Assembly (NCBI RefSeq): GCF_024496245.1
Contig: NZ_CP101740.1
Span: 2,789,501 to 2,853,500 of the forward strand
DNA from: Sphingomonas qomolangmaensis
GTDB lineage: Bacteria; Pseudomonadota; Alphaproteobacteria; Sphingomonadales; Sphingomonadaceae
Direction of reading: 5' to 3'
Length of the DNA stretch: 64,000 nucleotides
The notes under the pieces were generated by a model. It ran no database searches. It saw only the letters and a program-made list of their open reading frames with translations, and was not told the DNA's origin. Positions 930-28,436 of this stretch are shown here, piece by piece; within the stretch, counting starts at the first letter, position 1; each line of letters begins with the position of its first letter. The position numbers were made by a program, and so were the translations under genes.

Positions 930-1931
930 GTGTCGTTCGTGATCCGTTTGCGCAGTGGGAAGGAGTTCGGCGCCGAGCCCGGTCAGTCCATCCTCAACGC
1001 CGCGCTCTCGCAATCGCTGGCGCTCGAATACAGCTGCCGGAACGGTAATTGCGGCGTCTGCAAGACCTCGATCATCGTCGGCGAGAGCGAGCTTCTGCGC
1101 CCCGAAATCGCGCTGTCGGCCGACGATGTCGCGGCTGGCTTCGGACTGACATGCTGCAGAACCGCAACCAGCGACATGGCGATCGGATCGGACGATCTGG
1201 CCCGGATATCGCATCTGGCGATCCGCACCCTGCCAGCGCGCATTTCGAGCATCGACCTGCTGGCACCCGATGTCGTGCGCGTGCTGTTGCGGCTGCCGCC
1301 GCGAACCGACTTCGCCTATGTCGCCGGCCAGTTCATCGATGTGATCTGGAACGGCGTTCGGCGCTCCTATTCGCTGGCTTCGGCACCGCGCGAAGACGGG
1401 TTGCTCGAGCTGCATATCCGCGCCTTTGCCAATGGCGTCCTCAGCGGCTATTGGTTCAGCCAGGCCAAGCCCAACGACCTGCTCCGGATCGAGGGGCCGC
1501 TCGGCACCTTCTACCGCCGCGACGACGCGGCCGAGCGGCTGATCTTCCTCGCGACGGGTACCGGCTTGGCGCCGGTGAAGGCGCTGATCGAGGACCTCGT
1601 CGCTTCGGCAGATTCGATGCCGCCTTCGGTCGAAGTCTATTGGGGCAATCGAACCGCGCAGGATTTCTATTGGGAGCCGGTCGATCTGCCAACCGGCGTT
1701 GCCTTTACGCGCGTACTTTCGGGTGCCGATCCCGATTGGGTCGGTGCGCGCGGGCATGTCCAGAACGTGCTGGCCGCCGGCGGGCCGGACCTGTCGAGTG
1801 CGACGGTCTACGCCTGCGGTTCGCAGGCAATGATCCTCGGCGCACAGGCCGTGCTGCGCGACTATGGGCTGCAGGATCACAACTTTCATTATGACGCATT
1901 TGTGGAATCGGGGGATTTGGATCAGTCATGA
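930..1931 (+). CDS. ddhD: CDP-6-deoxy-delta-3,4-glucoseen reductase (E3), ferredoxin-reductase type
   Basis: Supplies electrons to the E1 dehydrase encoded at 3794 during C-3 deoxygenation of CDP-4-keto-6-deoxyglucose. The 333-residue protein has a plant-type [2Fe-2S] ferredoxin domain first (C36, C41, C44 and C75 or C76, in SCRNGNCGVC), then an FAD domain (RSYSLAS), then an NAD(P)H domain (ATGTGLAPVKALIE and YACGSQ). This domain order is the one known for the Yersinia/Salmonella enzymes AscD, DdhD and RfbI. I chose the GTG at 930 because AGAGGAA lies just upstream and the ferredoxin domain begins there. A longer frame from 840 adds 30 residues that do not resemble the family. The stop overlaps the next start by 4 bases (ATGA), indicating an operon. 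The family name is secure and its role in this pathway follows from context. Confidence 0.9.
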   Translation: MSFVIRLRSGKEFGAEPGQSILNAALSQSLALEYSCRNGNCGVCKTSIIVGESELLRPEIALSADDVAAGFGLTCCRTATSDMAIGSDDLARISHLAIRTLPARISSIDLLAPDVVRVLLRLPPRTDFAYVAGQFIDVIWNGVRRSYSLASAPREDGLLELHIRAFANGVLSGYWFSQAKPNDLLRIEGPLGTFYRRDDAAERLIFLATGTGLAPVKALIEDLVASADSMPPSVEVYWGNRTAQDFYWEPVDLPTGVAFTRVLSGADPDWVGARGHVQNVLAAGGPDLSSATVYACGSQAMILGAQAVLRDYGLQDHNFHYDAFVESGDLDQS

Positions 1932-2698
1932 AAGCAGTGATCTTGGCGGGTGGTTTGGGTACCCGGTTCAGCGAAGAGACGTCGATGCGCCCCAAACCGA
2001 TGATCGAAATCGGCGGGCGCCCGATCCTGTGGCATATCCTGAAGATCTACGCGTCGCACGGAGTGAATGATTTCGTGATCTGCTGCGGGTATAAAGGGTA
2101 TGTGATCAAGGAGTATTTCTCCAACTACGCGCTGCACACGTCGGACGTCACGATCGACATGCGCGACAACACGATCGACGTACATGAGCGTCGCGCCGAG
2201 CCGTGGCGGATCACGCTGGTCGATACCGGCGAGACATCGATGACCGGGGGCCGCCTGCGTCGGGTCGCGAACTATGTGAGGGACGAATCCGAATTCTTCT
2301 TCACCTATGGCGACGGCGTCGGCGACATCGACGTGGCGGCGTCGCTTGCCTTCCACCGCTCGCACGGCAAGGCGGCAACGCTGACCGCGACCGCGCCGCC
2401 GGGCCGCTTCGGCGCACTGCGGATGGAAGGCGCCAAGATCACCAGCTTCGAAGAGAAGCCCGATGGCGATGGCGGGCTGATCAACGGCGGCTTCTTCGTG
2501 CTGAGCCCCAAGGTGCTCGACTATATCGATGACGATTCGTCGGTCTGGGAGCAGGAACCACTGCATCGCCTGTCGGCGGATGGCGAACTGATGGCGTTCG
2601 AGCATCGCGGCTTCTGGCAGCCGATGGATACGCTGCGCGACAAGGTCCATCTTGAAAATCTGTGGGAGCGCGGCGTGGCGCCGTGGAAGACCTGGTAA
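1928..2698 (+). CDS. rfbF: Glucose-1-phosphate cytidylyltransferase
   Basis: First committed step: alpha-D-glucose-1-phosphate plus CTP gives CDP-glucose and pyrophosphate. The 256-residue length is normal for RfbF/DdhA. The nucleotide-binding signature AGGLGTRFSEETSMRPKPM is at residues 8-26, and WHILKIYASHG, YGDGVGDID and NGGFFVL follow as in characterised cytidylyltransferases. The TSMRPKPM variant separates it from the thymidylyltransferase RmlA found at 25052. It overlaps the upstream reductase by 4 bases, and its stop shares one base with the next ATG, so the genes are probably translationally coupled. Confidence 0.95.
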   Translation: MKAVILAGGLGTRFSEETSMRPKPMIEIGGRPILWHILKIYASHGVNDFVICCGYKGYVIKEYFSNYALHTSDVTIDMRDNTIDVHERRAEPWRITLVDTGETSMTGGRLRRVANYVRDESEFFFTYGDGVGDIDVAASLAFHRSHGKAATLTATAPPGRFGALRMEGAKITSFEEKPDGDGGLINGGFFVLSPKVLDYIDDDSSVWEQEPLHRLSADGELMAFEHRGFWQPMDTLRDKVHLENLWERGVAPWKTW

Positions 2699-3780
2699 TG
2701 GGCCTGGTCGATCCCACCTTTTGGTGCGGGCGCCGGGTATTCATGACCGGGCATACCGGCTTCAAGGGCAGTTGGCTTTCGCTTTGGCTGCAGGACATGG
2801 GCGCGGTCGTCACCGGCTACGCGCTCACCCCTGTCGGCGAGGTCAGCTTGTTCGATGCCGCGCGGGTCGCCGACGGCATGAGATCGGTGATCGGCGACAT
2901 TCGCGATTTGGAAAGCCTGCGCTCGGCGATGGCCGAGGCCGATCCCGAAATCGTGATCCACATGGCAGCGCAGCCGCTGGTGCGGCTGTCTTATCGCGAT
3001 CCCCTGGGGACGTACGAGACCAACGTGATGGGCACCGCCAAGGTGCTCGAGGCGGCGCGTGCGATGCCCGCGCTGCGCGCGGTCGTCAGCGTGACCACCG
3101 ACAAATGCTACGAGAACCAGGAATGGGACTGGGGCTATCGCGAGAACGAACCGATGGGGGGGCACGACCCCTACAGCAACAGCAAGGGCTGCGCCGAACT
3201 GGTGACCAGCGCCTATCGCGCGAGCTTCTTTGCACCTGGCGGCCAGGTCGCTCTGGCCTCGGCGCGGGCGGGCAACGTCATCGGCGGCGGCGATTGGGCC
3301 GCCGACCGGATCGTGCCCGATGCGATGGCGGCGTTCGCCAAGGGTGAGGTCCTGCAGGTCCGCAACCCCAATGCAATACGGCCCTGGCAGCATGTGCTCG
3401 AGCCGCTATCAGGATATCTTGTCCTGGCGCAGGCGCTATGGCGCGGCGGCGCCGAATTCGCCGAAGGCTGGAATTTCGGCCCCGGCGGCGACGATGCGCA
3501 GACCGTCGCCGAGGTCATCGGCACGTTGCAGGCGGCTTGGGGCGCGGGCGCGAGCTGGCAGCACGATGATGGCGAACATCCGCACGAGGCGCGGTATCTG
3601 AAGCTGGATACGTCGAAGGCGCGCAACCGGCTGGGGTGGCGCCCGGTATGGTCGGTCGAGCATACGCTAGAGCGGATCGTCGCCTGGCACCGTAGCTGGC
3701 TGGCCGGAAACGACATGCGGGGCGCAAGCCTTGGCGAAATCAAGACCTACAGGGCTGCCGCCGTCGCGGCCCAGAAATAA
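2698..3780 (+). CDS. rfbG: CDP-glucose 4,6-dehydratase
   Basis: Converts CDP-glucose to CDP-4-keto-6-deoxyglucose with bound NAD+. The short-chain dehydrogenase/reductase fold of 360 residues begins with [17 protein letters not shown] (the GxxGxxG dinucleotide site). It then has the VTTDKCYEN segment and the catalytic YSNSKGCAE (YxxxK). The [15 protein letters not shown] and [15 protein letters not shown] stretches are typical of RfbG/DdhB. The ATG at 2698 overlaps the upstream TAA by one base. An alternative in-frame ATG at 2662 lies inside rfbF and adds residues unlike the family. The neighbours on both sides act in the same pathway. Confidence 0.95.
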
Positions 3781-3793
3781 GGGTATAGGGATC

Positions 3794-5122
3794 ATGGCTA
3801 CCACTATCGAAACCACCGAAGACCTGCGCGCACAGATCGGCGAGCTCGTCCGCAAGTTCGCCGCCCAGCAATATGCTCCCAAGGCATTCGTGCCCGGCGA
3901 AACCGTCATCCCGCCCGCGGGCAAGGTGATCGGCTCGCGCGAGCTCGAATTGATGGTCGAGGCATCGCTCGACGGCTGGCTGACCACCGGGCGGTTCAAT
4001 ACCGAATTCGAAGCCAAGCTGGGCGCGTTCCTGGGGGTGCCGCACGTTCTGACCACCACGTCGGGGTCGTCGGCGAACCTGCTCGCGCTGGCGGCGCTGA
4101 CCTCGTCCAAGCTCGGCAGTCGTGCGCTCAAGCGCGGCGACGAAGTGATCACCGTCGCTGCCGGCTTTCCGACCACGGTCAATCCGAGCGTCCAATATGG
4201 GCTGATCCCGGTTTTCGTCGATGTCGATATCCCCACCTACAATATCGATGCCAGCCGGATCGAGGCGGCGATCACCCCCAAGACCAAGGCGATCATGATC
4301 GCACACACGCTGGGCAACCCCTTCGACCTGGGCGAAGTCCGGCGGATTTGCGACGAGCACAATCTGTGGCTGGTCGAGGATTGCTGCGACGCGTTGGGTG
4401 CCACCTATAACGGGCAGCTGGTCGGCACCTTCGGCGACGTCGCCACGCTCAGCTTCTACCCCGCGCATCACATCACGATGGGTGAGGGCGGGGTGGTCTT
4501 CACGCGGTCGAACGAGCTCAAGCCGATCATCGAATCGTTCCGCGACTGGGGCCGCGACTGCTATTGCGCGCCGGGCTGCGACAACACGTGCGGCATGCGC
4601 TTCTCGCAGAAGTTCGGGACGCTGCCGCCGGGCTATGACCACAAATATGTCTATTCGCATGTCGGCTATAATCTGAAGATCACCGATATGCAGGCGGCGT
4701 GCGGCGTGGCGCAGCTCGAACGCGCCGAGGGCTTCATCGCCGCGCGGCGTCGCAACTTCGATTTGTTGACCCAGCGTTTCGCGGCGTTGGAAGAGGTGAT
4801 GATCCTGCCCGAGGCGACGCCGAATTCGGACCCTTCCTGGTTCGGTTTCCCGGTGACGCTGCGCGACGGGTGCGGCGTGAATCGCGTCGATCTGCTGAAG
4901 TTCCTCGACGGACACAAGATTGGAACCCGCCTGGTGTTCGCTGGCAATCTCATCCGCCAGCCGATGTTCGCGGGGGTCGAGCATCGCGTCGTCGGCGATC
5001 TCACCAACACCGACAAGGTGATGAGCGACACCTTCTGGCTCGGCCTGTACCCGGGGCTCGGCGCCGAACATTTCGATTTCGTCGGCGAGAAGATCGAAGA
5101 ATTCTTCGGCATGAACTTCTAA
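3794..5122 (+). CDS. rfbH: CDP-4-keto-6-deoxy-D-glucose 3-dehydrase (E1), PMP and iron-sulfur dependent
   Basis: Removes the C-3 hydroxyl of CDP-4-keto-6-deoxyglucose together with the E3 reductase at 930. The 442-residue protein has the aspartate-aminotransferase fold. Where aminotransferases carry the PLP lysine (SFYPxK), this protein reads SFYPAHHIT, with histidines at 225 and 226. That replacement is the known mark of E1 enzymes, which use pyridoxamine phosphate. A cysteine group (C256, C258, C262, C266 in [12 protein letters not shown], plus C197/C198) matches the region that binds the [2Fe-2S] cluster in AscC/RfbH. The ATG at 3794 follows the rfbG stop by 13 bp. The family is certain from these motifs. 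Confidence 0.96.
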
Positions 5123-5134
5123 GGTTCGGCGACG

Positions 5135-6070
5135 ATGCTCCTCGTCACCGGCGCCTCGGGCTTCCTCGGCGCACACGTCGTTGCCGAGGCGATCCAGCGC
5201 GGCAGGGCGGTGCGCGCCGGGATGCGGCGGTCTTCGGACCGTTCGCGCCTCGACGCGCTCGCGCCGCAAGCGCAGACCGCGTGGCTCGACTTGGATGACT
5301 CAGCGACGCTCGATGCCGCGCTGGCTGGGTGCACCGCGATCATCCACTGCGCCGCATATGGCGTCGATTATCGCCAATCGGACTTCTATACCGCGCTCGA
5401 AACCAACGTCGCGGCAACGATGCGGCTTGCCGAAGCTGCGGCGTCGCGCGGGGTCCGGCTGGTGCATGTCGGCACCTCGTACGAATATGGCACGCAGGAC
5501 GGTCTGCTGGCCGAAGACCGGGTGCTTTCGCCGACGGGAATCTATGGTGTCACCAAGGCTGCGGGAACGCTCGCGGTGCAGGACTTCGCGCGCCGCACCG
5601 GCGCCGATTGCACGGTACTGCGACCCTTCAGCATGTACGGTCCGCTCGAGGGCACGCACAAGATCGTCGCCGCGGCGATGCGCGCGAGCCTGGCCGGAGA
5701 AATGCTCGACCTGTCGCCCGGCGCGCAAGAGCGCGACTATCTGTACGTCGCCGACGTCGCTGCGGCTTGCATCGACGTTGCGACTGCCGCGACCTTTCCA
5801 CGCGGCGAGATATTGAACATATGTTCGGGCGAGGGGCTCAGCCTGCGCGCACTATTGACCGCGGCTGCCCAGGCGGTCGGCGGGAACGAAGGGGTGTTCC
5901 GCTGGGGCGCCAAGGCCTATCGACCCGCGGAGAGCATGCGAGTCGTGGGCGACCCGGCGCGTATCGCCAAGGTGCTGCGATGGAGGGCGACGACGTCGCT
6001 TGCCGAAGGCATGGCTGCCACCGCGCGGTGGGAGTTGGAACGACTGCAACGTGAAGGTGAATCGTCTTGA
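5135..6070 (+). CDS. rfbS: NAD(P)-dependent epimerase/dehydratase, probable CDP-paratose synthase
   Basis: Probably reduces CDP-4-keto-3,6-dideoxyglucose at C-4 to CDP-paratose. It is a 311-residue SDR protein with TGASGFLG at residues 5-12, VGTSYEYG, and the catalytic pair Y137/K141 in YGVTK. Sequence alone does not separate a paratose synthase from an abequose synthase (opposite C-4 configuration). The 2-epimerase encoded directly downstream uses CDP-paratose, so paratose is the likely product. It starts 13 bp after rfbH, and its stop overlaps the TTG start of the next gene by three bases. The substrate and symbol are inferred from context. Confidence 0.75.
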   Translation: MLLVTGASGFLGAHVVAEAIQRGRAVRAGMRRSSDRSRLDALAPQAQTAWLDLDDSATLDAALAGCTAIIHCAAYGVDYRQSDFYTALETNVAATMRLAEAAASRGVRLVHVGTSYEYGTQDGLLAEDRVLSPTGIYGVTKAAGTLAVQDFARRTGADCTVLRPFSMYGPLEGTHKIVAAAMRASLAGEMLDLSPGAQERDYLYVADVAAACIDVATAATFPRGEILNICSGEGLSLRALLTAAAQAVGGNEGVFRWGAKAYRPAESMRVVGDPARIAKVLRWRATTSLAEGMAATARWELERLQREGESS

Positions 6071-7098
6071 AGCTACTCATCACCGGCGGATGCGGATTTC
6101 TCGGCAGCAACCTTTCGGCGGCGGCGCTCAAGCAGGGGTTCGACCTCACGCTGTTCGACAATCTGTCGCGGCTGGGCTCGGCCGACAATCTTGGCTGGTT
6201 GCGGCAGCAGGGTCATTTCCAGCACGTCCATGGCGACATCCGCAACCCCAACGACGTGATGCGCACGATCGAGGATGTCCGCCCCGACGCGGTGTTCCAT
6301 GTGGCGGGGCAAGTCGCGATGACGACCTCGATCGCCAATCCGCGGCTGGATTTCGAGACCAACGCGTTCGGCACGCTCAACCTGCTCGAGGCAGTGCGCG
6401 CCCACGCCCCCGAAGCGACGATCGTCTACAGCTCGTCGAACAAGGTCTATGGCGACCTCGAATGGGTGGATTACCAGGAAACTGACACGCGCTATGTCGA
6501 TCCGGCGCGGCCGCAGGGCCTTGGCGAGGATACGCCGCTCGATTTCCAGTCGCCTTATGGTTGTTCGAAGGGCGCCGCCGACCAGTATATGCAGGATTTT
6601 GCACGGGTGTACGGCCTGCGCACCGTCGTCTTCCGTCATTCGTCGATGTACGGGCTTCGCCAGTTCGGCACCTTCGATCAGGGCTGGATCGCGTGGTTCT
6701 GTGCGCAGGCGGTGAAGACCAAGCACGGGCTGCTCAACGCGCCGTTCACGATCGCCGGAAACGGCAAGCAGGTGCGCGACGTGCTCGAAGCCAAGGATAT
6801 GGAGCGGCTGTATTTCGCCGCGGTCAGGCATATCGACAAGGCGGCGGGGCAGGTGTTCAACGTCGGCGGTGGGATGGACAACAGCCTGTCGCTGCTCGAA
6901 CTGTTCGGGCTGCTCGAAGAATGCATCGGCATGCCGCTCGCCTATGAAAAGCTGCCGGCGCGCTATAGCGACCAGCGCATCTTCGTCGCCGATCTGGCAA
7001 AGGCGAAGCGGTTGCTCGACTGGCAGCCGCAGGTAGGCACGCGCGAAGGCATCGCCGCCGCGGTCGCTTGGGCCGAGCAGACCGTCTCGAAAATCTGA
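6067..7098 (+). CDS. rfbE: CDP-paratose 2-epimerase (CDP-tyvelose epimerase)
   Basis: Inverts C-2 of CDP-paratose to give CDP-tyvelose. The 343-residue SDR protein is strikingly close to Salmonella RfbE as I recall it. It shares MKLLITGGCGFLGSNL, VHGDIRNPNDV, HVAGQVAMTTSI, YSSSNKVYGDLE, DFQSPYGCSKGAADQYM (catalytic Y164/K168) and FRHSSMYGLRQF. The start is a TTG at 6067 inside the upstream stop, preceded by GAAGGTGA, and no ATG is available at the family's N-terminus. This enzyme is the specific marker of tyvelose biosynthesis and fixes the end product of the operon. Confidence 0.93.
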   Translation: MKLLITGGCGFLGSNLSAAALKQGFDLTLFDNLSRLGSADNLGWLRQQGHFQHVHGDIRNPNDVMRTIEDVRPDAVFHVAGQVAMTTSIANPRLDFETNAFGTLNLLEAVRAHAPEATIVYSSSNKVYGDLEWVDYQETDTRYVDPARPQGLGEDTPLDFQSPYGCSKGAADQYMQDFARVYGLRTVVFRHSSMYGLRQFGTFDQGWIAWFCAQAVKTKHGLLNAPFTIAGNGKQVRDVLEAKDMERLYFAAVRHIDKAAGQVFNVGGGMDNSLSLLELFGLLEECIGMPLAYEKLPARYSDQRIFVADLAKAKRLLDWQPQVGTREGIAAAVAWAEQTVSKI

Positions 7099-7102
7099 TT
7101 CC

Positions 7103-8473
7103 ATGCGAACGAGCGATCTGATCCCTGCTCGCGTGCGGGAGGCGTCACGCGGTCTGCTCGGTTCTAAATGGGGACCCGTGATGATGACCGCTGGCGCAGG
7201 CTGGGTCGGTCGGATCGTCGCGGCTGTCGCGCAAATCGGCGCGATCCGTATCCTCACAGGGTTGCTAGGGGTCGACGGTTATGGCGCCTTCGCCGTCATC
7301 AGCGGATTGCTGGCCTGGTTCATGCTGGCTGATCTGGGCTTCGGCCCCGCGCTTCAAAACTACATTTCGGGTCAACGCGTTGCCGACAAGCCGGTCGGTA
7401 CGGCGATCTGGACCGTTTGCCTGGTTCTTCTGGCAGCGATGGTGGCGCTGTCGTTGCTCTGGCTTGCGGTCGCGGCATGGGCAGGGCCGGCGTTGGTCGG
7501 AAGATATGATACCGTTGGCCATCGCGAGGCGGTGTTGGCGTTCTTCGCTTTTGCCGTCGTTGCGACCGGGGCAGGGGTCAGCGCGGTCGCCATGCGGGTG
7601 GCGTTCGCCGAACACCGCGGGTATCTAGCCCATGCAATGACCGCCAGCGCGAGCGTGCTGGGCGTGCTGGGCCTGTTGATCTTTGCCCCGTGGTTCGGCG
7701 AGAACAAGCTGGTGTGGGCGCTTTTCTGCTATTTTCTTCCTGGTTGGCTGATCCCGATGTATTTCCTGGCTCGCAAGCTGGTGAAGCTGTGGGAGACCGG
7801 AGAGATAGCGGGCCTGGGGGTCAACCGGGAAGTCCTATCGCTCCTTTTTCCCGAAGCACGAAAGTTCTTGATCCTCTATGCGCTGGCCGCGCTCGTTAAC
7901 AACGTCGATTTCATTATATTATCGCAAACCGTATCGGCCGACGAGGTCGCGGTTTATGCGGTGTTCTCCAAAATATTCGTACTCGCTTTCACGATAGTCA
8001 ACAGCGTCATCGGTGCGTATTGGCCGGTAAGCGCTGAAATGGTGCACCGCCGCGATCTTAGTGGCATTAACCGCGTCATTCTGGTGTGCTTCTCCATCGG
8101 TGCGTCGGCCATATTTCTGATGGGTGCGATGCTGCTGGTCACGAGGCATTACATCGCCGACATATTGGCGCCGTCCGCCGATCTCGCCCTTCCCGCCACG
8201 CTGATCGCGTTCTTTGTGGTATATTGGATCGTGCGGGTTTGGTCCGACACCTTTGCGATGTTGGTCGTGAGCGCCAGTAAGGCCCACATCTTGTCTTTCA
8301 TTGCGGCACCGCAAGCGCTTATGAGCGTCGCGCTCGGCTATTGGGGGGCCAAGAGCTATGGCGTGTCCGGCCTGATGGTGGGGATGACGTGCGCTTTTCT
8401 TTTAACCACCGGCTGGGCGCTCCCATGGTACATGCACCGCTTTCGCCAACAGCTACATCAAGAGGCGACATGA
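7103..8473 (+). CDS. wzx: Wzx-type polysaccharide flippase
   Basis: Integral membrane protein of 456 residues with about a dozen hydrophobic segments and the MATE-like fold of oligosaccharide flippases (PST family). The N-terminus GWVGRIVAAVAQIGAIRILTG followed by DGYGAFAVISGLLAWFMLAD is typical of O-antigen/teichoic-acid exporters. It should move the undecaprenyl-linked repeat unit across the inner membrane. The gene begins 4 bp after rfbE and overlaps the next gene by 4 bases. Its DNA has more AT-rich stretches (for example around 7900-8000) than the surrounding genes, as is common for Wzx genes that move between strains. Confidence 0.88.
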   Translation: MRTSDLIPARVREASRGLLGSKWGPVMMTAGAGWVGRIVAAVAQIGAIRILTGLLGVDGYGAFAVISGLLAWFMLADLGFGPALQNYISGQRVADKPVGTAIWTVCLVLLAAMVALSLLWLAVAAWAGPALVGRYDTVGHREAVLAFFAFAVVATGAGVSAVAMRVAFAEHRGYLAHAMTASASVLGVLGLLIFAPWFGENKLVWALFCYFLPGWLIPMYFLARKLVKLWETGEIAGLGVNREVLSLLFPEARKFLILYALAALVNNVDFIILSQTVSADEVAVYAVFSKIFVLAFTIVNSVIGAYWPVSAEMVHRRDLSGINRVILVCFSIGASAIFLMGAMLLVTRHYIADILAPSADLALPATLIAFFVVYWIVRVWSDTFAMLVVSASKAHILSFIAAPQALMSVALGYWGAKSYGVSGLMVGMTCAFLLTTGWALPWYMHRFRQQLHQEAT

Positions 8474-9546
8474 CAGACGGTACAACCTCCCGGTTCGCGT
8501 TGTCGATCTGCATCCCGACGTATAACCGGGCCGCCGAACTGCCCTTCCTGCTCGATAGCATTGCAGCGCAGATTGGCGCGCTCGAGGCGCCATGGTCGCG
8601 TGACAGCGTCGAGGTGGTGATTAGCGACAATGCGTCCACCGACCATATTGCCCAAGTGGTAGAGCACTATCGATCGATCTTGCCTTCGATCGTGTTTATC
8701 CAGCACCCGCAAAATCTGGGCGCGGATCGTAACTACCTCGCGGTGGCGGAGGCTGCGGGCGGTGTCTTTTGCTGGATGATGGGAAGCGACGACAAGATCG
8801 AGGAAGGCGCGCTGTTGCGCGTGTTGGACGCCACGCTGCAATGGCCGGAAGCTGCGGGTTTCTCGGTGAACATGGTTCCGTACGACGGGGCGCTGCAGCA
8901 ACGCATTCCGCAGCACCTCCCCCCGTTTCGATGGACCGATGACCGGCTGGTTCGTGGCGCCGAGACCATTTTCCGGGAGTTCGGCATCTATTATGGCTAT
9001 CTATCGGGCCAGGTGATCCGCCGGGACTTGTGGAATTCGGTGTGCGCGACGGGTGAGCAACTGCAGTATCTCAACGCGTACGTGCATGTCCTCGTGATCG
9101 GGCGGATGTTGCAAAAAGCTCCGTCTTGGGGATTTGTCCACCATGCGTGCGTCGGTTGGCGCAGTGGCAACGACTCGTTCCTGGGCGATGGATGGGTTCG
9201 CAGGCTCGAGATCGACCTGATCGGGTATCGATCGGTGACCGTGGCGCTCTTCGGCGAGCATAGCCCGGTCGTTGCCGATATTCGCGACCAGCTCGCGGCG
9301 CGCCACAACTATCATCAATTCCGTCACGCGAAGCTGCGCGGGGAATCGCGCGCAAGCCTGGCAAGAGCGTCGCGTCTGCTCACCGCCAGCCTATGGCGGT
9401 CGCCGGTGTACTGGACCAAGTTGCTGCCGTGGATCCTCGCGCCGGGCTGGTTGACCCACGCAATCTACGAAGTCTACAAAACCCGTCTCCGCCCAACCGT
9501 GCGACGGGTCAAGTTGCAACGGGAGCGGGCGCGCATCGGGCGTTGA
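8470..9546 (+). CDS. Family 2 glycosyltransferase, candidate tyvelosyltransferase (RfbV-like)
   Basis: A 358-residue GT-A fold transferase starting at the ATG in the 4-base overlap with the flippase gene. It has LSICIPTYNR at the N-terminus, SDNASTD (residues 52-58), PQNLGADRNYLAVAEAAGG, and the nucleotide-sugar/metal motif GSDD at 105-108. The WxxGSDD context and a later GNDSF segment resemble the Salmonella abequosyltransferase RfbV, which also transfers a CDP-3,6-dideoxyhexose. Because it sits in the same operon as the CDP-tyvelose genes, I infer that it adds tyvelose as a side branch. The acceptor is unknown. Confidence 0.82.
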   Translation: MTDGTTSRFALSICIPTYNRAAELPFLLDSIAAQIGALEAPWSRDSVEVVISDNASTDHIAQVVEHYRSILPSIVFIQHPQNLGADRNYLAVAEAAGGVFCWMMGSDDKIEEGALLRVLDATLQWPEAAGFSVNMVPYDGALQQRIPQHLPPFRWTDDRLVRGAETIFREFGIYYGYLSGQVIRRDLWNSVCATGEQLQYLNAYVHVLVIGRMLQKAPSWGFVHHACVGWRSGNDSFLGDGWVRRLEIDLIGYRSVTVALFGEHSPVVADIRDQLAARHNYHQFRHAKLRGESRASLARASRLLTASLWRSPVYWTKLLPWILAPGWLTHAIYEVYKTRLRPTVRRVKLQRERARIGR

Positions 9547-9610: not shown

Positions 9611-10471
9611 ATGGCCAATCGACTGATCGACGTGCTGCGACTTCGTAAGAACAGCGCACGCCGGCGCTTGGCTCGGCTTTTGCCCAGCAGGCACCAGAGC
9701 GGCAATATTTTCGAGACGCCGAACGGTACTTTTGCCATCCCCACCAGCGATCTCGAGATCTCACGCATCTTGCGACGCGGGCAAAGCTGGGGGCACGAAG
9801 AGGTCGAGCGGATTTGCGCGGTCGTTCCCGCCGGTTCGTCGGTCCTGTTCGTGGGCGGCCATGTCGGAACGCTTGCGGTGCCGGTTGCCCGGCGCTTCAA
9901 GGACGTCACGGTAATCGAAGCGAACCCCGAGACCTTCCGGTTCCTGTCGGCAAATATCCACCTCAATAAGGCCGATAACGTCACCCTGGTCCAAATCGCC
10001 GCGGGCGAGAAGAAGGGGGTGATCGAGTTCGTCGCCAGCAAGAACAATACCGGAGGATCGAAGCGTAAGCCCCTGGTCGCCGATCCGCGATACTATTACG
10101 ACAAGCCCGACCTGATCTCGGTAGACATGGTCCGTCTGGACGATATTCTCGAACCGCGCTTCGCGTCGATTGTGATGGATATCGAGGGTTCGGAATATTT
10201 TGCGCTGAGGGGTATGCCCAAGGTGCTGGCCGACGCGCAGACCTTGTTCATCGAATTCCTGCCGCATCATCTGGAAAACGTCGCCGGCGCTTCGGTCGAG
10301 CAATTCTATGATGCGATCGGCACCGCATTCGACCACCTCTTCGTGCCGTCCCAGCACAAGACCGTCAGCGGGCCGGCCGTCTTGGCAACGCTGAAGCAGC
10401 TTTACGACGGCGGCGTCGGCGAAGAGGTGTTGGTGTTTTCGAAAGGACCGTTGGCGGTCGGCATCACCTAA
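9611..10471 (+). CDS. FkbM-family methyltransferase
   Basis: A 286-residue protein with an S-adenosylmethionine-binding core. VLFVGGHVGTLAVPVARRF occupies the motif I position and VIEANPETFRFLSANIHLN is motif II. The FkbM-typical IVMDIEGSEYFALRGMPKVL and LFIEFLPHHL follow. FkbM enzymes O-methylate sugars or small-molecule hydroxyls. Here a methylation of the polysaccharide, possibly of a tyvelose or rhamnose hydroxyl, is the natural guess. AAGGA lies 8 bp upstream of the ATG. It is the last gene of the plus-strand operon, 64 bp after the glycosyltransferase, and is followed by a hairpin at 10592. Confidence 0.85.
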   Translation: MANRLIDVLRLRKNSARRRLARLLPSRHQSGNIFETPNGTFAIPTSDLEISRILRRGQSWGHEEVERICAVVPAGSSVLFVGGHVGTLAVPVARRFKDVTVIEANPETFRFLSANIHLNKADNVTLVQIAAGEKKGVIEFVASKNNTGGSKRKPLVADPRYYYDKPDLISVDMVRLDDILEPRFASIVMDIEGSEYFALRGMPKVLADAQTLFIEFLPHHLENVAGASVEQFYDAIGTAFDHLFVPSQHKTVSGPAVLATLKQLYDGGVGEEVLVFSKGPLAVGIT

Positions 10472-10648: not shown

Positions 10649-11932
10649 TCAGGCGTTGCCGGGGTTCGGTTCGCCATCAGCTATCGCGCGGATAGCCGTC
10701 AGCACCTCGCCGGCTGCGGTGTTCCAGTCGGGCCAGGTGAACGCTGCGGCGCGCGCGCGCCAAATGTCGGGGTCGGCCTCGAACGCCGCGATCGCCGCGG
10801 GTAGCGCAGAGGCGTCGCCAACGTCGAAATAGGCGATCGCGTCGCCGCCGACCTCGCGAAAGATCGGGATGTCCGAAGCGATGACCGGGATATCGCGCGC
10901 GAACGCCTCGATGATCGGCAGGCCGAATCCCTCTACCTGTGAGGCCAGGATCACCGCATCGGTCGATCCCAGGATCGTCGCAAGGTCGCTGTCGCTGGCG
11001 TCATGGACGATTGCCAGGCGAGCCCCGCGTTCGGGGTGGTTGTCGAGCCGCGCCTTCATGTCGGGCGACGCCCATCCCAATTTGCCGATGATCGTCAATT
11101 TGCTCGGCGATCCCGTCGCCCACCGACGCTCGAACGCATCGAGTACCCGGTCATGCCCCTTGCGCGGTTCGATCGTGCCGACGATCGCGTAGCGAAACGG
11201 TCCCCCGGCGCGATGCGTTCGCGCAGGGCCGGGAGCATTGTCGTTGCCCAGGTGGAACCAGTGGATCGGTAGCTTGGGCAATCTGGCACCGAGATAGGTG
11301 CGAAGCTCGCGTGCGCTCTGGCGCGATATCGCCACGACGCCATCGCTGATCGCCAGCGCCCGGTTGAGGTGCCGTGGAAAGACCAACGTCATCAGCGACG
11401 GCATCGATTTCGGATGGGTTATCGGAATGATGTCGTAGAGCGCGCTGACGACGATGGCCCCGTCGCGGCGTGCGCTCGCGGCGGCTGCGATCGAAGAGAC
11501 GCCTGCCCAATAGGAATCTAGCAGCAGGATGGCGTCGTGCGGCCCGAAGCTCGCCGGCGCGACCTCGAGGAAGGGACGCAACAACGGCTCGAACTTGCGC
11601 TGCTTCTGCTTCGCTTGCAGCACGACATAGACCGGTGGCACGATCGTCAGCAGCTTGCCGACGAACTGCACCAACGCTCCCGCCGACCCCGTACCAGCCG
11701 CCGACCGCTGCGCCCCCAGCCGGGCAAGTCCTTCGGCATTCAGCCGATAAAACCTGCCCTCGATGCTTGCGACCGGATGGATCTGCGGCCCGCCTTCGGC
11801 TTCCAGCGCACCCAGCGCCGCCACCAGCTTGCGAACCACCCGCTCGATGCCCGTCCATTTGCCGGTGGCCAATGTCTCGGTGACATCGATATGGATCGAC
11901 CGGAGCGACGCATCCGCCGGGGATACCGTCAT
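10649..11932 (-). CDS. Family 4 glycosyltransferase
   Basis: A 427-residue GT-B protein. The C-terminal half has the family 4 donor site: FRYAIVGTIEPRKGHD, LTIIGKLGW and VILASQVEGFGLPIIEAF, in which the EGFGLPxxEA motif holds the catalytic/nucleotide glutamates. The N-terminal half contains HIDVTETLATGKWTGIERV, an arrangement seen in mannosyl/rhamnosyl transferases that act on lipid-linked oligosaccharides. The gene lies 40 bp downstream of the Wzc-type kinase gene on the same strand, so the two are probably cotranscribed. The donor sugar cannot be read from the sequence. GDP-D-rhamnose or dTDP-L-rhamnose are candidates. Confidence 0.88.
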   Translation of the reverse strand: MTVSPADASLRSIHIDVTETLATGKWTGIERVVRKLVAALGALEAEGGPQIHPVASIEGRFYRLNAEGLARLGAQRSAAGTGSAGALVQFVGKLLTIVPPVYVVLQAKQKQRKFEPLLRPFLEVAPASFGPHDAILLLDSYWAGVSSIAAAASARRDGAIVVSALYDIIPITHPKSMPSLMTLVFPRHLNRALAISDGVVAISRQSARELRTYLGARLPKLPIHWFHLGNDNAPGPARTHRAGGPFRYAIVGTIEPRKGHDRVLDAFERRWATGSPSKLTIIGKLGWASPDMKARLDNHPERGARLAIVHDASDSDLATILGSTDAVILASQVEGFGLPIIEAFARDIPVIASDIPIFREVGGDAIAYFDVGDASALPAAIAAFEADPDIWRARAAAFTWPDWNTAAGEVLTAIRAIADGEPNPGNA

Positions 11933-14158: not shown

Positions 14159-14914
14159 TTAACGCGCGATTTGCTGGATGGCGACGAAGCCGGTGGTCAA
14201 CGTCGGCGCGATCGCCAACAAGTTCCGCATGAAGACCTTGCGTCCCGATGTCCCGACGATGACGATGTCGTCGGCCCGAATCTGGGGGTCCGCCGCACTG
14301 CCGCTCTGGATCGCGCCCAGATCGAACATGGCGGCGTAGCGCGTGTTCCCGATGGTCCGGAATACCACCACTTGTTCAACCTTGGCGACCGCGCTTACCC
14401 CCTTTGCCATGGCGACAGCCTGCAACAGCGATGTATCGCCCTGCAGAGGATACACTCCGGCCTCCTTGACCTCGCCATCAACGGTCACCTTTTGCGACAC
14501 CGATGTCTTGATCAAGACCGACACCTGGGGGTTCACCAGGAAGCGCTCGCCCAGCTTCTCTGCGATCAGCTTCGAAACCTCGGCGCTGCTCAGGCCCGCA
14601 ACGGTGATCTGGCCGATCAACGGGAAGATGATGCTCCCGCTCGCGTCGACGGGCACCTCTTCGAGCGACAGGTCTTCCTCTTGGAAAACCGATATCGTGA
14701 GCACGTCGAGCGGCCCGATCTGATAGTCGCGCCGGGCATTGGGATCCTGGCCCGCGGCGGGCATCAGTGCGTACGCCGCCGACCCCACCTCGGCGACGGG
14801 TTGCGGGCCCGACGAGCATGCCTGCAACGCGCCGAGCGCGCCGAGCGCGCAAGCGATCGCAGCCGCGCGATGGGTCGCGGCCGCATGGCGAGCACGCGAG
14901 CTGGAAATTCTCAT
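14159..14914 (-). CDS. wza: Outer-membrane polysaccharide export lipoprotein (Wza/OPX family)
   Basis: A 251-residue lipoprotein with a basic N-region, a hydrophobic stretch and the lipobox LQAC ending at Cys33. The Poly_export domain (YQIGPLDVLTISVFQEEDLS) is followed by SLBB-type segments (VTVDGEVKEAGVYPLQG and IVIVGTSGRKVFM). It should form the outer-membrane exit channel working with Wzc. I place the start at the ATG at 14914. A TTG at 14935 would add seven residues. It is the first gene of a minus-strand unit (wza, wzc, glycosyltransferase), and its promoter must lie in the 188-bp divergent gap before 15103. Confidence 0.9.
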   Translation of the reverse strand: MRISSSRARHAAATHRAAAIACALGALGALQACSSGPQPVAEVGSAAYALMPAAGQDPNARRDYQIGPLDVLTISVFQEEDLSLEEVPVDASGSIIFPLIGQITVAGLSSAEVSKLIAEKLGERFLVNPQVSVLIKTSVSQKVTVDGEVKEAGVYPLQGDTSLLQAVAMAKGVSAVAKVEQVVVFRTIGNTRYAAMFDLGAIQSGSAADPQIRADDIVIVGTSGRKVFMRNLLAIAPTLTTGFVAIQQIAR

Positions 14915-15102
14915 GATACTCGTAACAATCCTCAAGACGACCAGTGGTCGCGATCGATTTCGCTATATGGTTAGAGCGTATCGCTTGCAAGCCGCTTGCG
15001 GTGGGGTATTGCCGCGCTGCGGCGGGCGTCAGCGGCTTCTTACCACTCGATAATCTCCTTTGCTGGACATGTCGCGACCGCACTTCTAAGTCCTCGCGCA
15101 AT

Positions 15103-17749: not shown

Positions 17750-17864
17750 CGCCGGTCTGGCAGCAGATGCGTTGCGCTCTTTAGGGCAGAGGGCTATTCT
17801 CGTTGAAAAGGGGGTATCCGCTTCGGCGGACCCCGGCGCCAGAATTCGGTCGGGGTACTCCAGC

Positions 17865-22047: not shown

Positions 22048-23085
22048 ATGTCGAAAATTGCCTTAATCACGGGTATCAGCGGGCAGGATGGTGCCTATCT
22101 GAGCGAGCAGCTGCTTGAAAAGGGCTACACCGTCTACGGCACCTATCGTCGGACGAGCTCGGTCAATTTCTGGCGGATCGAGGAATTGGGGCTGCTCGAC
22201 CACCCCAATCTCCACCTCGTCGAATTCGACCTTACCGACATGGGATCGGGCATCCGCCTGCTCGACAGCTCGGGCGCAACCGAAGTGTATAACCTGGCGG
22301 CGCAGAGCTTCGTCGGGGTGTCGTTCGATCAGCCGCTCACCACCGGGCACATCACCGGGCTGGGCGCGGCGCACATGCTCGAATCGATCCGCACGGTGAA
22401 CCCCGCGATCCGCTTCTACCAGGCATCGACGTCGGAGATGTTCGGCAAGGTCCAGGCGATCCCGCAGACCGAGGACACCCCCTTCTACCCGCGCAGCCCC
22501 TATGGCGTCGCCAAGCTCTATGCGCATTGGATGACGGTGAACTTCCGCGAGAGCTTCGGCATCTTCGGCGCGAGCGGCATCCTGTTCAACCACGAATCCC
22601 CCTTGCGCGGTCGCGAGTTCGTCACGCGCAAGATCACCGACACCGTCGCCAAGATCCATGTCGGCAAGGCCGATGTGCTCGAGCTCGGCAATCTCGACGC
22701 CAAGCGCGATTGGGGCTTCGCCCGCGATTATACCGAGGGGATGTACCGCATCCTGCAGCATGACGAGCCCGACACCTTCGTCCTCGCCACCAACCGCACC
22801 GAAACCGTGCGCGACTTCGTCTCGATGGCGTTCCGCGGCATCGATATCGACATCGAATGGTCGGGCACCGCCGAGGACGAGATCGGGGTCGATCCCAAGA
22901 GCGGCCGGACGCTGGTGCGGATCAATCCCAAATTCTACCGCCCGGCCGAGGTCGAATTGCTGATCGGCGACGCCAGCAAGGCCAAGCGGCTGCTCGGATG
23001 GGAAGCGACGACCTCGCTCGAGGAATTGTGCCGGCTGATGGTCGAGGCCGATCTTCGGCGCAACATCAACGGCACGTCGTTCTGA
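22048..23085 (+). CDS. gmd: GDP-mannose 4,6-dehydratase
   Basis: Converts GDP-D-mannose to GDP-4-keto-6-deoxy-D-mannose. A 345-residue SDR enzyme with [19 protein letters not shown] at the N-terminus, [17 protein letters not shown] (the NADP-binding RR motif), [27 protein letters not shown] and the catalytic [27 protein letters not shown] completes the signature. All are standard Gmd motifs. The ATG at 22048 has a nearby ribosome-binding site. Longer in-frame starts lie in the divergent intergenic region. The stop shares one base with the next start. Confidence 0.96.
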
Positions 23086-23927
23086 TGCGGGTGCTGGTGA
23101 CCGGCGGACAGGGGTTCACCGGCCGCTATCTGGCCGATGCCCTGGTCGCCGCGGGTCACGAACCCTCGGCGTTCGCCGCCGACGTCACCGATCGCGCCGC
23201 GGTCGAGGCGGCGGTCGATGCCGCGCGCCCCGATGCGGTCATCCACCTGGCGGCGAGCGCGTTCGTCCACTCGGACGATGTCGTCGGATTCTACGCGATC
23301 AACCAGATCGGCACCTTCCATCTGCTCGATGCGCTCGCCAGGACCGCGCCGGGCGTACCGGTGCTGCTGGCGAGCAGCGCCACCATCTATGGCAACGCCG
23401 CCTCGGGCTATCTGACCGAGGACGCGCCGTGTGCGCCCGCCAACCATTATGCCGCGAGCAAGCTGGCGATGGAGATCGGCGCCAGGCTGTGGGCCGATCG
23501 GTTCCCGATCGTCACGGTGCGGCCGTTCAACTATACCGGGCGGGGGCAGGACGAACGCTATCTGATCGCCAAGATCGTCGCGCACTTCCGGCGCCGCGAT
23601 GCGGTGATCGAACTCGGCAACCTCGATGTCGCGCGCGATTTCGGCGACGTGCGCGCGGTGGTGCAGGCCTATGTCGGGCTGATCGAGCAGCGAACCGGCG
23701 GCGTGTATAATGTCTGCACCGGCGCGGTGCATTCGATCCGCGACATCATCGCGATGTGCCAGGCAATCACCGGCCATGCGATCGAGGTGCGGGTGAACCC
23801 GGCCTTCGTGCGCGCGAACGACGTCGCGCTGCTGGCCGGCAACCCCGCCCGGCTGCGCGCGGCGCTGCCGCAATGGCAGGTGCCGACGATGCACGACACA
23901 TTGGCTTGGATGCTCGAGCCCGCCTGA
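23085..23927 (+). CDS. rmd: GDP-4-keto-6-deoxy-D-mannose reductase (Rmd-like, GDP-D-rhamnose synthase)
   Basis: A 280-residue SDR protein beginning VLVTGGQGFTGRYLADAL, with catalytic YAASKLAME and the segment VRPFNYTGRGQDERYLI, which closely recalls Pseudomonas Rmd (RPFNHIGxGQ). It probably reduces the Gmd product to GDP-D-rhamnose. A GDP-6-deoxy-D-talose synthase would look similar and cannot be excluded. The stop of gmd and the start of this gene share one base (TGATG), so the genes are coupled and work in sequence. Confidence 0.83.
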   Translation: MRVLVTGGQGFTGRYLADALVAAGHEPSAFAADVTDRAAVEAAVDAARPDAVIHLAASAFVHSDDVVGFYAINQIGTFHLLDALARTAPGVPVLLASSATIYGNAASGYLTEDAPCAPANHYAASKLAMEIGARLWADRFPIVTVRPFNYTGRGQDERYLIAKIVAHFRRRDAVIELGNLDVARDFGDVRAVVQAYVGLIEQRTGGVYNVCTGAVHSIRDIIAMCQAITGHAIEVRVNPAFVRANDVALLAGNPARLRAALPQWQVPTMHDTLAWMLEPA

Positions 23928-23966: not shown

Positions 23967-25055
23967 ATGAAGATCGGTTTCGACGCGCACGTCCTCGACG
24001 GGCGCGACCAGGGCACCAAGACGCTGATGCTGCGGCTGATCGACGCGGTCGCGCGGCGGCATCCCAGGCATCAGGTACTGGTATATGGCGAACGGCCCCA
24101 CGCCGAACTCGATTTCACCTTGCCCAATCTGCAGTTCCGCCCGACGGTCCGGCACAATGTGGTGCGCTATTTGATGCACACGCTGCCCAGCGCGAGCCGT
24201 GCCGATCGGCTCGACACGATGGTGTTCAATTTCGTGCAGTCGCCGCTGATGCGCAACGCGACGGTGATGATCCACGACATCCTGCCACAGACGCACTCGC
24301 GCTTCTTTCCGCCCAAGTTCGTCGCGCAATGCTGGGCGCTGTTCGGCATGTCGGCCTTGCTGGCAAAGCACCTGTTCACGATCAGCGAATATTCGAAATC
24401 AGAGATCCGGTCGGTCTATCCCTGGACCCGCGGCAAGACGATTTCGGTCCTGCATATCGGCGCGTCCTTTCCCAAGGACGTCTATTTCGCCGGGGATGTC
24501 GGCAACCAACCCGCCGCGTTGCCCGCGGGGACGCGCTATATCCTCGCGGTCGGACGGATCGAGCCACGCAAGAACATCCAGATGGCGATCGACGCGTTCC
24601 GGGCCGGGGCGCCCGACGACGTCAAGCTGGTCATCGTCGGTCGGCGCGAGCCCGGGATCGCGATCGATACTCACGACGATCCGCGCATCATGGAGCTGAC
24701 CGGGGTCTCGGACGCCGATCTGATCACGATTTACCGCCGCGCGGCGTTGTTCCTGTACCCAAGCGTCGCCGAAGGGTTTGGCCTGCCGCTGCTCGACGCG
24801 ATCCTCTTCGGGCTGCCGGTAATCGCGTCGCGTCGCACGTCGATGCAGGAAGTCGGGGAGGGCGGCGCCACCTTCTTCGATCCCGCCGAGGCCGACGCCA
24901 CGCAGTGGCTGGGCAACAGGATCGCCGCGCATTTCGGCGACGATCCGGTCGCGCCGCCAAGCTTCGAGACCCGCGCGGCAAAGGCGGCGCTCTACGCCTG
25001 GGACAACGCGGCCGACGAACTGGTCGCGGGCATCACCGGGCGGGCGACGCGCTAG
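23967..25055 (+). CDS. Family 4 glycosyltransferase
   Basis: A 362-residue GT-B enzyme, with [19 protein letters not shown] at the N-terminus, [43 protein letters not shown] and the donor-site motif [20 protein letters not shown]. The ISEYSKSEI and EPRKN features are common in D-rhamnosyl and mannosyl transferases such as WbdA/WbpY types. Directly following gmd and rmd, it is the best candidate for using GDP-D-rhamnose. Its stop overlaps the stop of rmlA on the other strand (shared CTAG at 25052-25055). Confidence 0.87.
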
Positions 25056-27863: not shown

Positions 27864-28436
27864 CTATTCGAGGTCGAGAAGCGGACGGCCATCATAGGTG
27901 AATGGCGAATTGAACGCCGACAGCGGCGGCAGCGCGGCGTCCTTGGCCGATAATTCGGGTTGCGTACCCGCGGGCAGCGGCCAGCCGATCGCGATCGTCG
28001 CATCGTCCCACCGCACGCCGCCGTCGCAATCGGGCGCGTAGAGGTCCGAACATTTGTACGAGACCTCGCAGTCGGCTTCCAGCGTCAGGAACGCGTGCGC
28101 AAAGCCGACCGGCACGAACAGCTGGTGCCCGTTGTCGGCGGACAATTCGGTACCGACCCATTTACCATAGGTCGGCGATTCGGCGCGAAGATCGACCGCC
28201 ACGTCGAAGATTCGCCCGCGAATACAGCGTACCAGCTTGTCCTGCCCGTGCGGCGGGGTCTGAAAATGCAGACCCCGCAAGGTGAAGGCGGGTGCCGACA
28301 GCGAATGATTGTCCTGCACGAAGGTACAATCGATGCCGATCGCGGCGAATGTCTCGACATTATAGACCTCGGTGAACCAGCCGCGCGTATCGCCATGACG
28401 GCGGGGGCGGATCAGTTGCACGGGGTTATCGGTCAT
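27864..28436 (-). CDS. rmlC: dTDP-4-dehydrorhamnose 3,5-epimerase
   Basis: Epimerises C-3 and C-5 of dTDP-4-keto-6-deoxyglucose. 190 residues in a cupin fold with DTRGWFTEVYN, FVQDNHSLS, TLRGLHFQTPPHGQDKLV (catalytic His), IFDVAVDLRAESPTYG, FVPVGFAHAFLTL and YKCSDLYAPDCDGGVRWDD. The ATG at 28436 marks the usual N-terminus. A much longer frame to 28577 is cysteine-rich and unlike the family. It is the first gene of the minus-strand rmlCBDA operon. Confidence 0.96.
   Translation of the reverse strand: MTDNPVQLIRPRRHGDTRGWFTEVYNVETFAAIGIDCTFVQDNHSLSAPAFTLRGLHFQTPPHGQDKLVRCIRGRIFDVAVDLRAESPTYGKWVGTELSADNGHQLFVPVGFAHAFLTLEADCEVSYKCSDLYAPDCDGGVRWDDATIAIGWPLPAGTQPELSAKDAALPPLSAFNSPFTYDGRPLLDLE

What the first reader, a model, noticed from the sequence alone, without database searches (positions are those of the whole stretch)
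930..9546. Complete CDP-tyvelose pathway in a sphingomonad-type polysaccharide locus
Six contiguous genes supply every step from glucose-1-phosphate to CDP-tyvelose: cytidylyltransferase, 4,6-dehydratase, E1 with its His-for-Lys change and cysteine cluster, E3 reductase, a C-4 reductase and the 2-epimerase. They are followed by a flippase and an RfbV-like transferase. This set is known from Salmonella group D and Yersinia O-antigens. I know of no sphingan with tyvelose, so the polymer may be new.
Basis: partly seen in the sequence, partly recalled or inferred. Interest (0 to 1): 0.75.

Follow-up and report, generated by a model that had tools for sequence, protein, structure and literature searches.

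The report
Tyvelose-making genes in a sphingomonad
A Sphingomonas-type bacterium carries the gene set for making the rare sugar tyvelose, described so far mainly from Salmonella and Yersinia, with one step entrusted to a different branch of enzyme, inside what looks like an export locus for a surface or secreted polysaccharide.

Summary
Window 930-9546 has eight intact, tightly packed genes in the published Salmonella order ddhDABC-prt-tyv-wzx-wbaV. RfbF, RfbG and RfbH pass NCBIfam cut-offs; RfbH keeps H220 and four cysteines; E3 is 33% identical to RfbI. The 6067 protein is a CDP-tyvelose 2-epimerase by score (PDB 503 and 465 bits, next 128), residues and tree.

Correction: the C-4 reductase (5135) is not an RfbS orthologue (23%). 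It belongs to a second clade, sister to RfbS/RfbJ, that fills the same slot in 7 of 12 RfbE loci with a visible neighbour, two of them outside the window's class. It is the only match to RfbS in this genome, so it most likely makes CDP-paratose; its stereochemistry is inferred.

The locus continues with Wzc, Wza, Wzy-like proteins, rmlABCD, gmd/rmd-like genes and a WcaJ-like primer: Wzx/Wzy export type, not a canonical sphingan cluster. The cassette is rare (epimerase in 1 of 396 genomes drawn from the order) but not unique: S. guangdongensis has it. No sugar chemistry was tested.

The parts
930..1931 (+). E3 / DdhD (RfbI-like) [2Fe-2S]-FAD reductase, GTG start
   Evidence: Fer2 + FAD_binding_6 + NAD_binding_1; 33% to Salmonella RfbI over 334 columns; 52-53% to the gene in the same place in S. 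guangdongensis and Hoeflea
1928..2698 (+). RfbF / DdhA glucose-1-phosphate cytidylyltransferase
   Evidence: TIGR02623 464 bits, cut-off 300; 70% to Salmonella RfbF
2698..3780 (+). RfbG / DdhB CDP-glucose 4,6-dehydratase
   Evidence: TIGR02622 500 bits, cut-off 278; 59% to Salmonella RfbG
3794..5122 (+). RfbH / DdhC = E1, CDP-4-keto-6-deoxyglucose 3-dehydrase
   Evidence: NF011936 735 bits, cut-off 423; PDB 3bcx 738 bits; 74% to Salmonella RfbH; H220 and Cys193, 251, 253, 261 kept
5135..6070 (+). C-4 reductase of 'class B', probable CDP-paratose synthase, not an RfbS orthologue
   Evidence: 23% to RfbS; sister clade to RfbS/RfbJ; same slot in 7 of 12 RfbE loci with a visible neighbour; AlphaFold2 pLDDT 97.2
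6067..7098 (+). RfbE / Tyv, CDP-tyvelose (paratose) 2-epimerase, TTG start
   Evidence: PDB 9rl0 and 1orr; 61% to Salmonella RfbE; VAM 83-85, SNK 124-126, Y164, K168, Q205; clade
7103..8473 (+). Wzx-like O-unit flippase
   Evidence: 29% over 430 columns to the flippase in the same place in Salmonella; 35-36% to S. guangdongensis and Hoeflea
8470..9546 (+). GT2 glycosyltransferase, candidate tyvelosyltransferase (WbaV/RfbV-like)
   Evidence: PF00535; 30% over 271 columns to the Salmonella GT2 in the same place; 40-43% to Hoeflea and S. guangdongensis
9611..10471 (+). FkbM-family methyltransferase, possible O-methylation of a repeat-unit sugar
   Evidence: TIGR01444 73 bits, cut-off 37.7
10649..11932 (-). 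GT4 glycosyltransferase
   Evidence: PF00534
11973..14147 (-). Wzc-type chain-length regulator and tyrosine kinase
   Evidence: TIGR01007 161 bits, cut-off 108
14159..14935 (-). Wza-type polysaccharide export protein
   Evidence: PF02563
14944..16536 (+). Wzy_C polymerase or ligase
   Evidence: PF04932
19291..20397 (+). GT4 glycosyltransferase with DUF1972
   Evidence: PF09314, PF13692
20471..21814 (-). second Wzy_C protein
   Evidence: PF04932
22048..23085 (+). GDP-mannose 4,6-dehydratase (Gmd)
   Evidence: TIGR01472 443 bits, cut-off 415 (ORF from 21895); start at 22048 counted from the translation
23085..23927 (+). SDR, probable GDP-4-keto-6-deoxymannose reductase (Rmd-like)
   Evidence: general SDR families only; position directly after Gmd; start counted
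23967..25055 (+). GT4 glycosyltransferase
   Evidence: PF13692
25052..28577 (-). rmlA, rmlD, rmlB, rmlC: dTDP-L-rhamnose genes
   Evidence: TIGR01207, TIGR01181; PF04321, PF00908
28652..30070 (+). WcaJ-like priming sugar-phosphate transferase
   Evidence: PF02397; TIGR03025 304 bits, cut-off 296
30110..31666 (+). right-handed beta-helix protein
   Evidence: PF13229

Best explanation
Genes 930-9546 are a complete 3,6-dideoxyhexose module of the ddhDABC-prt-tyv-wzx-wbaV type. RfbF makes CDP-glucose, RfbG dehydrates it to CDP-4-keto-6-deoxyglucose, RfbH with the E3 reductase removes the C-3 oxygen, the 5135 reductase reduces the 4-keto group to CDP-paratose, and RfbE inverts C-2 to give CDP-tyvelose. 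The GT2 at 8470 adds tyvelose to a lipid-linked repeat unit, the flippase at 7103 carries the unit across the membrane, and the neighbouring Wzy-like, Wzc and Wza proteins build and export it, probably as an exopolysaccharide or capsule. Shown here: gene content, order, family membership and active-site residues. Inferred: the C-4 configuration made by 5135, the sugar transferred, and the destination polymer. New against the Salmonella plan: the C-4 reductase comes from a separate sister clade of RfbS/RfbJ, and the module sits in a Wza/Wzc export locus of a sphingomonad. The confidence given is for the pathway up to CDP-tyvelose; that the sugar goes into an exported polymer rather than LPS I put at about two in three.
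For: Curated models for RfbF, RfbG and RfbH; RfbE by PDB hits, active-site residues and tree; E1 residues; E3 homology. Same eight-gene order as a Salmonella record, S. guangdongensis and Hoeflea. The slot before rfbE holds a class A or class B reductase in 12 of 12 loci with a visible neighbour: B in 7, A in 5. A, B and the Qipengyuania reductase form one side of a branch against 10 other SDRs, support 100/99. 5135 is the only match to RfbS (E <= 0.001) in the 3.43 Mb genome. 21 of the 52 closest relatives of 5135 share the exact longest-contig length with one of 119 listed RfbE-type proteins, against a mean of 0.3 after random offsets. None of the 14 positions that separate RfbE with B partners from RfbE with A partners is one of the named active-site residues. 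One flippase only was recognised among the genes scanned in the locus, and Wzc and Wza lie 2.4-5.4 kb beyond the module.
Against: 5135 is only 23% identical to RfbS; its best solved matches are MoeE5 (single sequence and fold) and a UDP-glucose 4-epimerase (profile), and class A itself holds both C-4 outcomes (proteins named paratose and abequose synthase), so homology cannot fix the stereochemistry. Two Azospirillum plasmids carry both a class B and a class A reductase near one RfbE. In G583 no rfbH was found beside the reductase. The TyvE of Thermodesulfatator acts on CDP-glucose (PMC13098431, PMC7851689), so family membership does not fix the substrate. The genome has further Wza, Wzy and flippase genes elsewhere; the flippase search there missed the window's own flippase, so it is no full census. 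No chemistry.
Confidence: 0.8

Rival explanations
1. The module makes CDP-tyvelose, but the sugar goes into LPS O-antigen (or another cell-bound glycan) rather than an exported polymer. This rival shares the pathway with the best explanation and differs only in the destination.
For: In the passages read, bacterial tyvelose is placed in O-antigens (PMC3715488, PMC13098431, PMC7725333); three Wzy_C proteins lie in the window, one of which could be a ligase; the module's gene order is that of an O-antigen cluster.
Against: Wza and Wzc export genes lie in the same locus, the set-up used by exopolysaccharides and capsules.
Confidence: 0.25
2. Class B reductases set the opposite C-4 configuration, so the pathway goes through CDP-abequose and RfbE turns it into CDP-3,6-dideoxy-D-lyxo-hexose, a sugar that I know (by recall) from no polymer.
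For: Class B is a separate clade, and the related class A gives either outcome (prt against abe, PMC3715488 passage).
Against: RfbE here keeps the residues of enzymes whose substrate is paratose, including Gln205 that contacts the C-4 hydroxyl (PMC13098431 passages); no named active-site residue separates RfbE with B partners from RfbE with A partners.
Confidence: 0.05
3. The end sugar is paratose or a CDP-mannose-type product: RfbE is idle, or acts on CDP-glucose as the Thermodesulfatator enzyme does.
For: TaTyvE acts on CDP-glucose, and CDP-3-deoxyglucose is no substrate for it (PMC7851689); Salmonella group A keeps a dead tyv gene (PMC3715488 passage).
Against: RfbE is open and keeps its residues, and RfbG, E1 and E3 would be pointless for CDP-mannose.
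Confidence: 0.07
4. An ascarylose-type pathway.
For: A Qipengyuania plasmid has rfbF-G-H, an RmlC-like 3,5-epimerase, a related reductase, wzx and a GT2.
Against: No 3,5-epimerase lies in the module here; the RmlC found (27864-28577) lies with rmlA, D and B; an RfbE is present instead.
Confidence: 0.02

Closest known systems
Salmonella group D ddhDABC-prt-tyv-wzx-wbaV segment (compared through a serovar India record, L012 and L022)
   Same: Same eight genes in the same order; RfbF 70%, RfbG 59%, RfbH 74%, RfbE 61%, E3 33%, Wzx 29%, GT2 30%
   Different: C-4 reductase from another clade (23%); Wza/Wzc export locus with gmd/rmd-like genes and a WcaJ-like primer
CDP-tyvelose 2-epimerases 1orr (S. 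typhi) and 9rl0 (Thermodesulfatator atlanticus)
   Same: 465 and 503 bits over nearly the whole length; VAM, NK, Y164, K168, Q205
   Different: Against the residues named for 9rl0, Thr124 is Ser and Gly197 is Leu
The same cassette in Sphingomonas guangdongensis (L004, L019) and a Hoeflea MAG (L005)
   Same: Eight genes, same order, class B reductase
   Different: Flippase only 35-36% identical; two GT2 genes in tandem in S. guangdongensis
Sphingan clusters and promonan (PMC11340318)
   Same: Wzx/Wzy-type genes; rml genes as in sphingans
   Different: No ABC transporter domain among the genes scanned; a 3,6-dideoxyhexose module is present; promonan itself is reported to hold Glc, Gal and GlcA

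Membership tests
CDP-tyvelose pathway | RfbF, RfbG and RfbH by curated models | tested here: met
CDP-tyvelose pathway | E1 with His220 and the four cysteines | tested here: met
   kept in 7 of 7 RfbH proteins aligned; that the cysteines bind the cluster is recalled
CDP-tyvelose pathway | E3 with 2Fe-2S, FAD and NAD domains | tested here: met
CDP-tyvelose pathway | 2-epimerase in the RfbE/TyvE clade with its active-site residues | tested here: met
CDP-tyvelose pathway | C-4 reductase producing the paratose configuration | not testable with these tools
   slot and partner suggest it; stereochemistry needs an assay
RfbS (Prt) CDP-paratose synthase | membership of the RfbS/RfbJ clade | tested here: not met
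   23% identity; separate clades, A 99/97 and B 99/97, within one wider group 100/99
ddhDABC-prt-tyv-wzx-wbaV module | eight genes in that order | tested here: met
   the C-4 reductase is of another clade
WbaV/RfbV transferase | GT2 next to wzx, homologous to WbaV | tested here: inconclusive
   30% over 271 columns, E 5.6e-29 in a small database; the donor sugar was not testable; that the Salmonella GT2 is WbaV rests on its place
Wzx/Wzy export locus | Wzx, Wzy, Wzc, Wza and a priming transferase together | tested here: met
   the flippase rests on homology to the Salmonella one, as no NCBIfam cut-off was passed
Canonical sphingan cluster | ABC transporter genes and dTDP-rhamnose genes in the cluster (implied by PMC11340318) | tested here: not met
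   rml genes present; no ABC transporter domain in the called genes of 930-31666

The most novel reading that the evidence does not exclude
Class B is an independent lineage of CDP-sugar C-4 reductase whose product is not CDP-paratose, so the cassette, with its RfbE-type 2-epimerase, makes a 3,6-dideoxyhexose not yet described (3,6-dideoxy-D-lyxo-hexose) and builds it into an exported sphingomonad polymer.
Probability: 0.05. Interest if true: 0.7.

Novelty: new variant of a known kind. Interest (0 to 1): 0.42.

Why it matters
[quoted passage not shown] pseudotuberculosis (PMC7725333, passages). Here the full cassette stands in a sphingomonad, in a Wza/Wzc export locus, and with a reductase clade that searches by RfbS identity would miss. 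If confirmed it gives another source of tyvelose enzymes and polymer (CDP-paratose and CDP-tyvelose could not be obtained in PMC7851689), and shows that the module is more widely spread than the enteric O-antigens suggest.

Tried and rejected
RfbE as a UDP- or dTDP-sugar enzyme: rejected by score gap and tree. 5135 as RfbS orthologue: rejected. A first tree with 26 metagenome relatives of class B rejected 'A plus B plus the Qipengyuania row, without those relatives' as one clade (p-AU 2e-05); that test was badly posed, because the relatives lie inside the B side; without them the group stands at 100/99. In one search the deep fork joining A and B has weak support (82/72), and the 10 or 11 control SDRs are ones at hand, among them no RmlD or GDP-fucose synthase. 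A second loose motif (Gly-x-Gln, then Asp and an aromatic residue) did not discriminate: it also hit 2 of 11 controls. Structure of 5135: a confident model, but the nearest solved folds (MoeE5, GalE and RmlB types) are about equally near and say nothing on stereochemistry. The search with the class A profile was swamped by Salmonella sequences. Literature, open papers only: tyvelose + Sphingomonas 1 paper, not on a sphingomonad; dideoxyhexose + Sphingomonas 0; '3 6-dideoxy' + Sphingomonas + exopolysaccharide 0; tyvelose + Alphaproteobacteria 2; a mixed search with 197 papers, of which I saw 30. tRNA: none upstream, a tRNA-Thr at the far end of the locus.
Full report
WHAT IS THERE. The six pathway genes and the two that follow are present, open and packed head to tail: neighbours overlap at 1928/1931, 2698, 6067/6070 and 8470/8473. 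RfbH begins at ATG 3794 and the GT2 at ATG 8470; there is no start codon at 3791 or 8458, where I first cut them. RfbF, RfbG and RfbH pass NCBIfam equivalog cut-offs. E3 has the three expected domains and is 33% identical to the Salmonella gene in the same place, which the record's table leaves unlisted.

THE EPIMERASE. The 6067 protein matches two solved tyvelose epimerases at 503 and 465 bits, the next solved relative at 128. Against the residues named for the Thermodesulfatator enzyme in PMC13098431 (seen: abstract and passages) it keeps VAM 83-85, Asn125, Lys126, Tyr164, Lys168 and Gln205; Thr124 is Ser and Gly197 is Leu. Three relatives at 43-46% from Bradyrhizobium, Azospirillum brasilense and Isosphaera plasmids have VAV instead of VAM and fall outside; the other named residues they keep. 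In a 24-row tree the protein sits in a 10-row RfbE clade with Salmonella RfbE (100/99), away from RmlB, Gmd, RfbG and others; eight outer branches of that tree are long.

THE REDUCTASE. This is the one place where the Salmonella plan is not followed. 5135 is 23% identical to RfbS and passes no specific model. I read the neighbours of the RfbE loci at 57% identity or more that searches gave: twelve show the gene before rfbE. It is class A (RfbS/RfbJ-like) in Salmonella, three Selenomonas loci and G583; class B in the window, S. guangdongensis, a Hoeflea MAG, two Azospirillum plasmids, and G1047 and G1081, which are listed as same phylum and so not of the window's class. Two Limnobacter loci end inside rfbE and show nothing, and an archaeal hit at 31% was not counted; the second copy of the S. 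guangdongensis locus (L019) was not counted twice. In G583 no rfbH was found beside the reductase. In a 26-row tree classes A (8 rows) and B (7 rows) each have 99/97, and A, B and the Qipengyuania reductase together stand against 10 other SDRs at 100/99. A loose pattern (aromatic-Gly, a few residues, Arg-x-x-Glu) hit 5 of 5 class B rows tested, 6 of 8 class A rows, the Qipengyuania row, 11 of 26 metagenome relatives and 0 of 11 control SDRs. A profile comparison of A and B gives 100% probability over 282 columns, as any two SDRs might. RfbS finds one match in the whole 3.43 Mb genome, the 5135 gene. So 5135 belongs to the wider group of CDP-3,6-dideoxyhexose C-4 reductases but not to the RfbS clade. 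The RfbE proteins that go with class B form one group (80/89, modest), and none of the 14 positions separating them from the others is a named active-site residue, as expected if the reductase was exchanged once without a change of product. 21 of the 52 closest relatives of 5135 share the exact longest-contig length with one of 119 listed RfbE-type proteins, against a mean of 0.3 (maximum 3) after random offsets; equal length suggests, but does not prove, the same contig.

THE LOCUS. Beyond the module come an FkbM methyltransferase, GT4 transferases, Wzc, Wza, two Wzy_C proteins, Gmd with an Rmd-like SDR, rmlA-D-B-C, a WcaJ-like primer and a beta-helix protein, then a tRNA-Thr and genes of other kinds (peptidases, apolipoprotein N-acyltransferase); upstream lie topoisomerase I and an M16 peptidase. 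That is a Wzx/Wzy export locus with CDP-tyvelose, dTDP-L-rhamnose and a GDP-6-deoxyhexose as predicted donors. It is not a canonical sphingan cluster by the features in PMC11340318 (seen: abstract and passages). One flippase was recognised among the genes scanned; two genes of the locus have no Pfam match and cannot be excluded. The genome has other flippase, Wza and Wzy genes at 0.64, 2.62, 3.07-3.09 and 3.19 Mb; the family search for flippases there did not list the window's own, so it is no full census. G+C is 0.60-0.62 over 6-10 kb against 0.66 for the window, but 12-14 kb is equally low.

HOW RARE. RfbE at E <= 1e-100 occurs in 1 of 396 genomes drawn from the order, at E <= 1e-90 in 2 of 385 of the class and 3 of 398 of the phylum, the window's own genome counted each time. 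The 5135 protein occurs in 2 of 295 genomes of the genus at E <= 1e-50 (the window's and G819) and in 1 of 396 of the order at E <= 1e-40. G819 is S. guangdongensis to judge by its contig length of 1,465,339 and its content. In metagenome-rich protein data the epimerase is common: 7,827 of 8,000 scored candidates have E <= 1e-100. A class-B protein of S. sanguinis at 63% is listed too.

WHAT IS KNOWN. PMC3715488 (passages) gives the Salmonella order ddhDABC, prt-tyv, wzx, wbaV, says that Yersinia pseudotuberculosis has the same pattern, and that abe and prt share 56% of bases while setting the two opposite C-4 forms. PMC7725333 (passages) calls these sugars rare and found primarily in Salmonella and Yersinia. 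A Campylobacter capsule with 3,6-dideoxy-heptoses is in print (PMC10440746, search listing only), so 3,6-dideoxy sugars in capsules are not new as such. An Azospirillum brasilense proteome paper lists a 'putative CDP-tyvelose-2-epimerase' (PMC4264754, passages); the A. brasilense rows listed here are the 43% relatives (20 of 1,658 records listed). No paper that I saw joins a sphingomonad with a 3,6-dideoxyhexose.

VERDICT. The finding is right in substance. It is a new variant of a known kind: a known pathway, a different clade at one step, and a new host and locus type.

Noticed in passing
L021:5218-12349 (Qipengyuania spongiae plasmid): rfbF-G-H followed by an RmlC-like 3,5-epimerase, an SDR related to the C-4 reductases, wzx and GT2: an ascarylose-like 3,6-dideoxyhexose cassette in another member of the Sphingomonadales, with no E3 listed beside it.
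   Followed up: partly
L013:9045-14925 and L014:9045-14978: Two Azospirillum plasmids carry both a class B reductase (before rfbE) and a class A reductase (downstream), also with no E3 listed in the stretch.
   Followed up: partly
L006 and L007 (Selenomonas ruminantium ATCC 12561): Two separate RfbE cassettes in one genome, both with class A reductases; the one in L007 is followed by wzx and GT2 as in Salmonella.
   Followed up: partly
window 32145-32219: tRNA-Thr directly beyond the right end of the polysaccharide locus.
   Followed up: no
window 16457-17749 and 17772-19196: Two proteins of the locus without any Pfam match at E <= 1e-4.
   Followed up: no
window 59964-61313: A third Wzy_C protein, with DUF5935, 28 kb outside the locus.
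   Followed up: no
L004:12354-14413: S. guangdongensis has two tandem GT2 genes (51% identical to each other) where the window has one, and a Gmd 77% identical to the window's further on.
   Followed up: no
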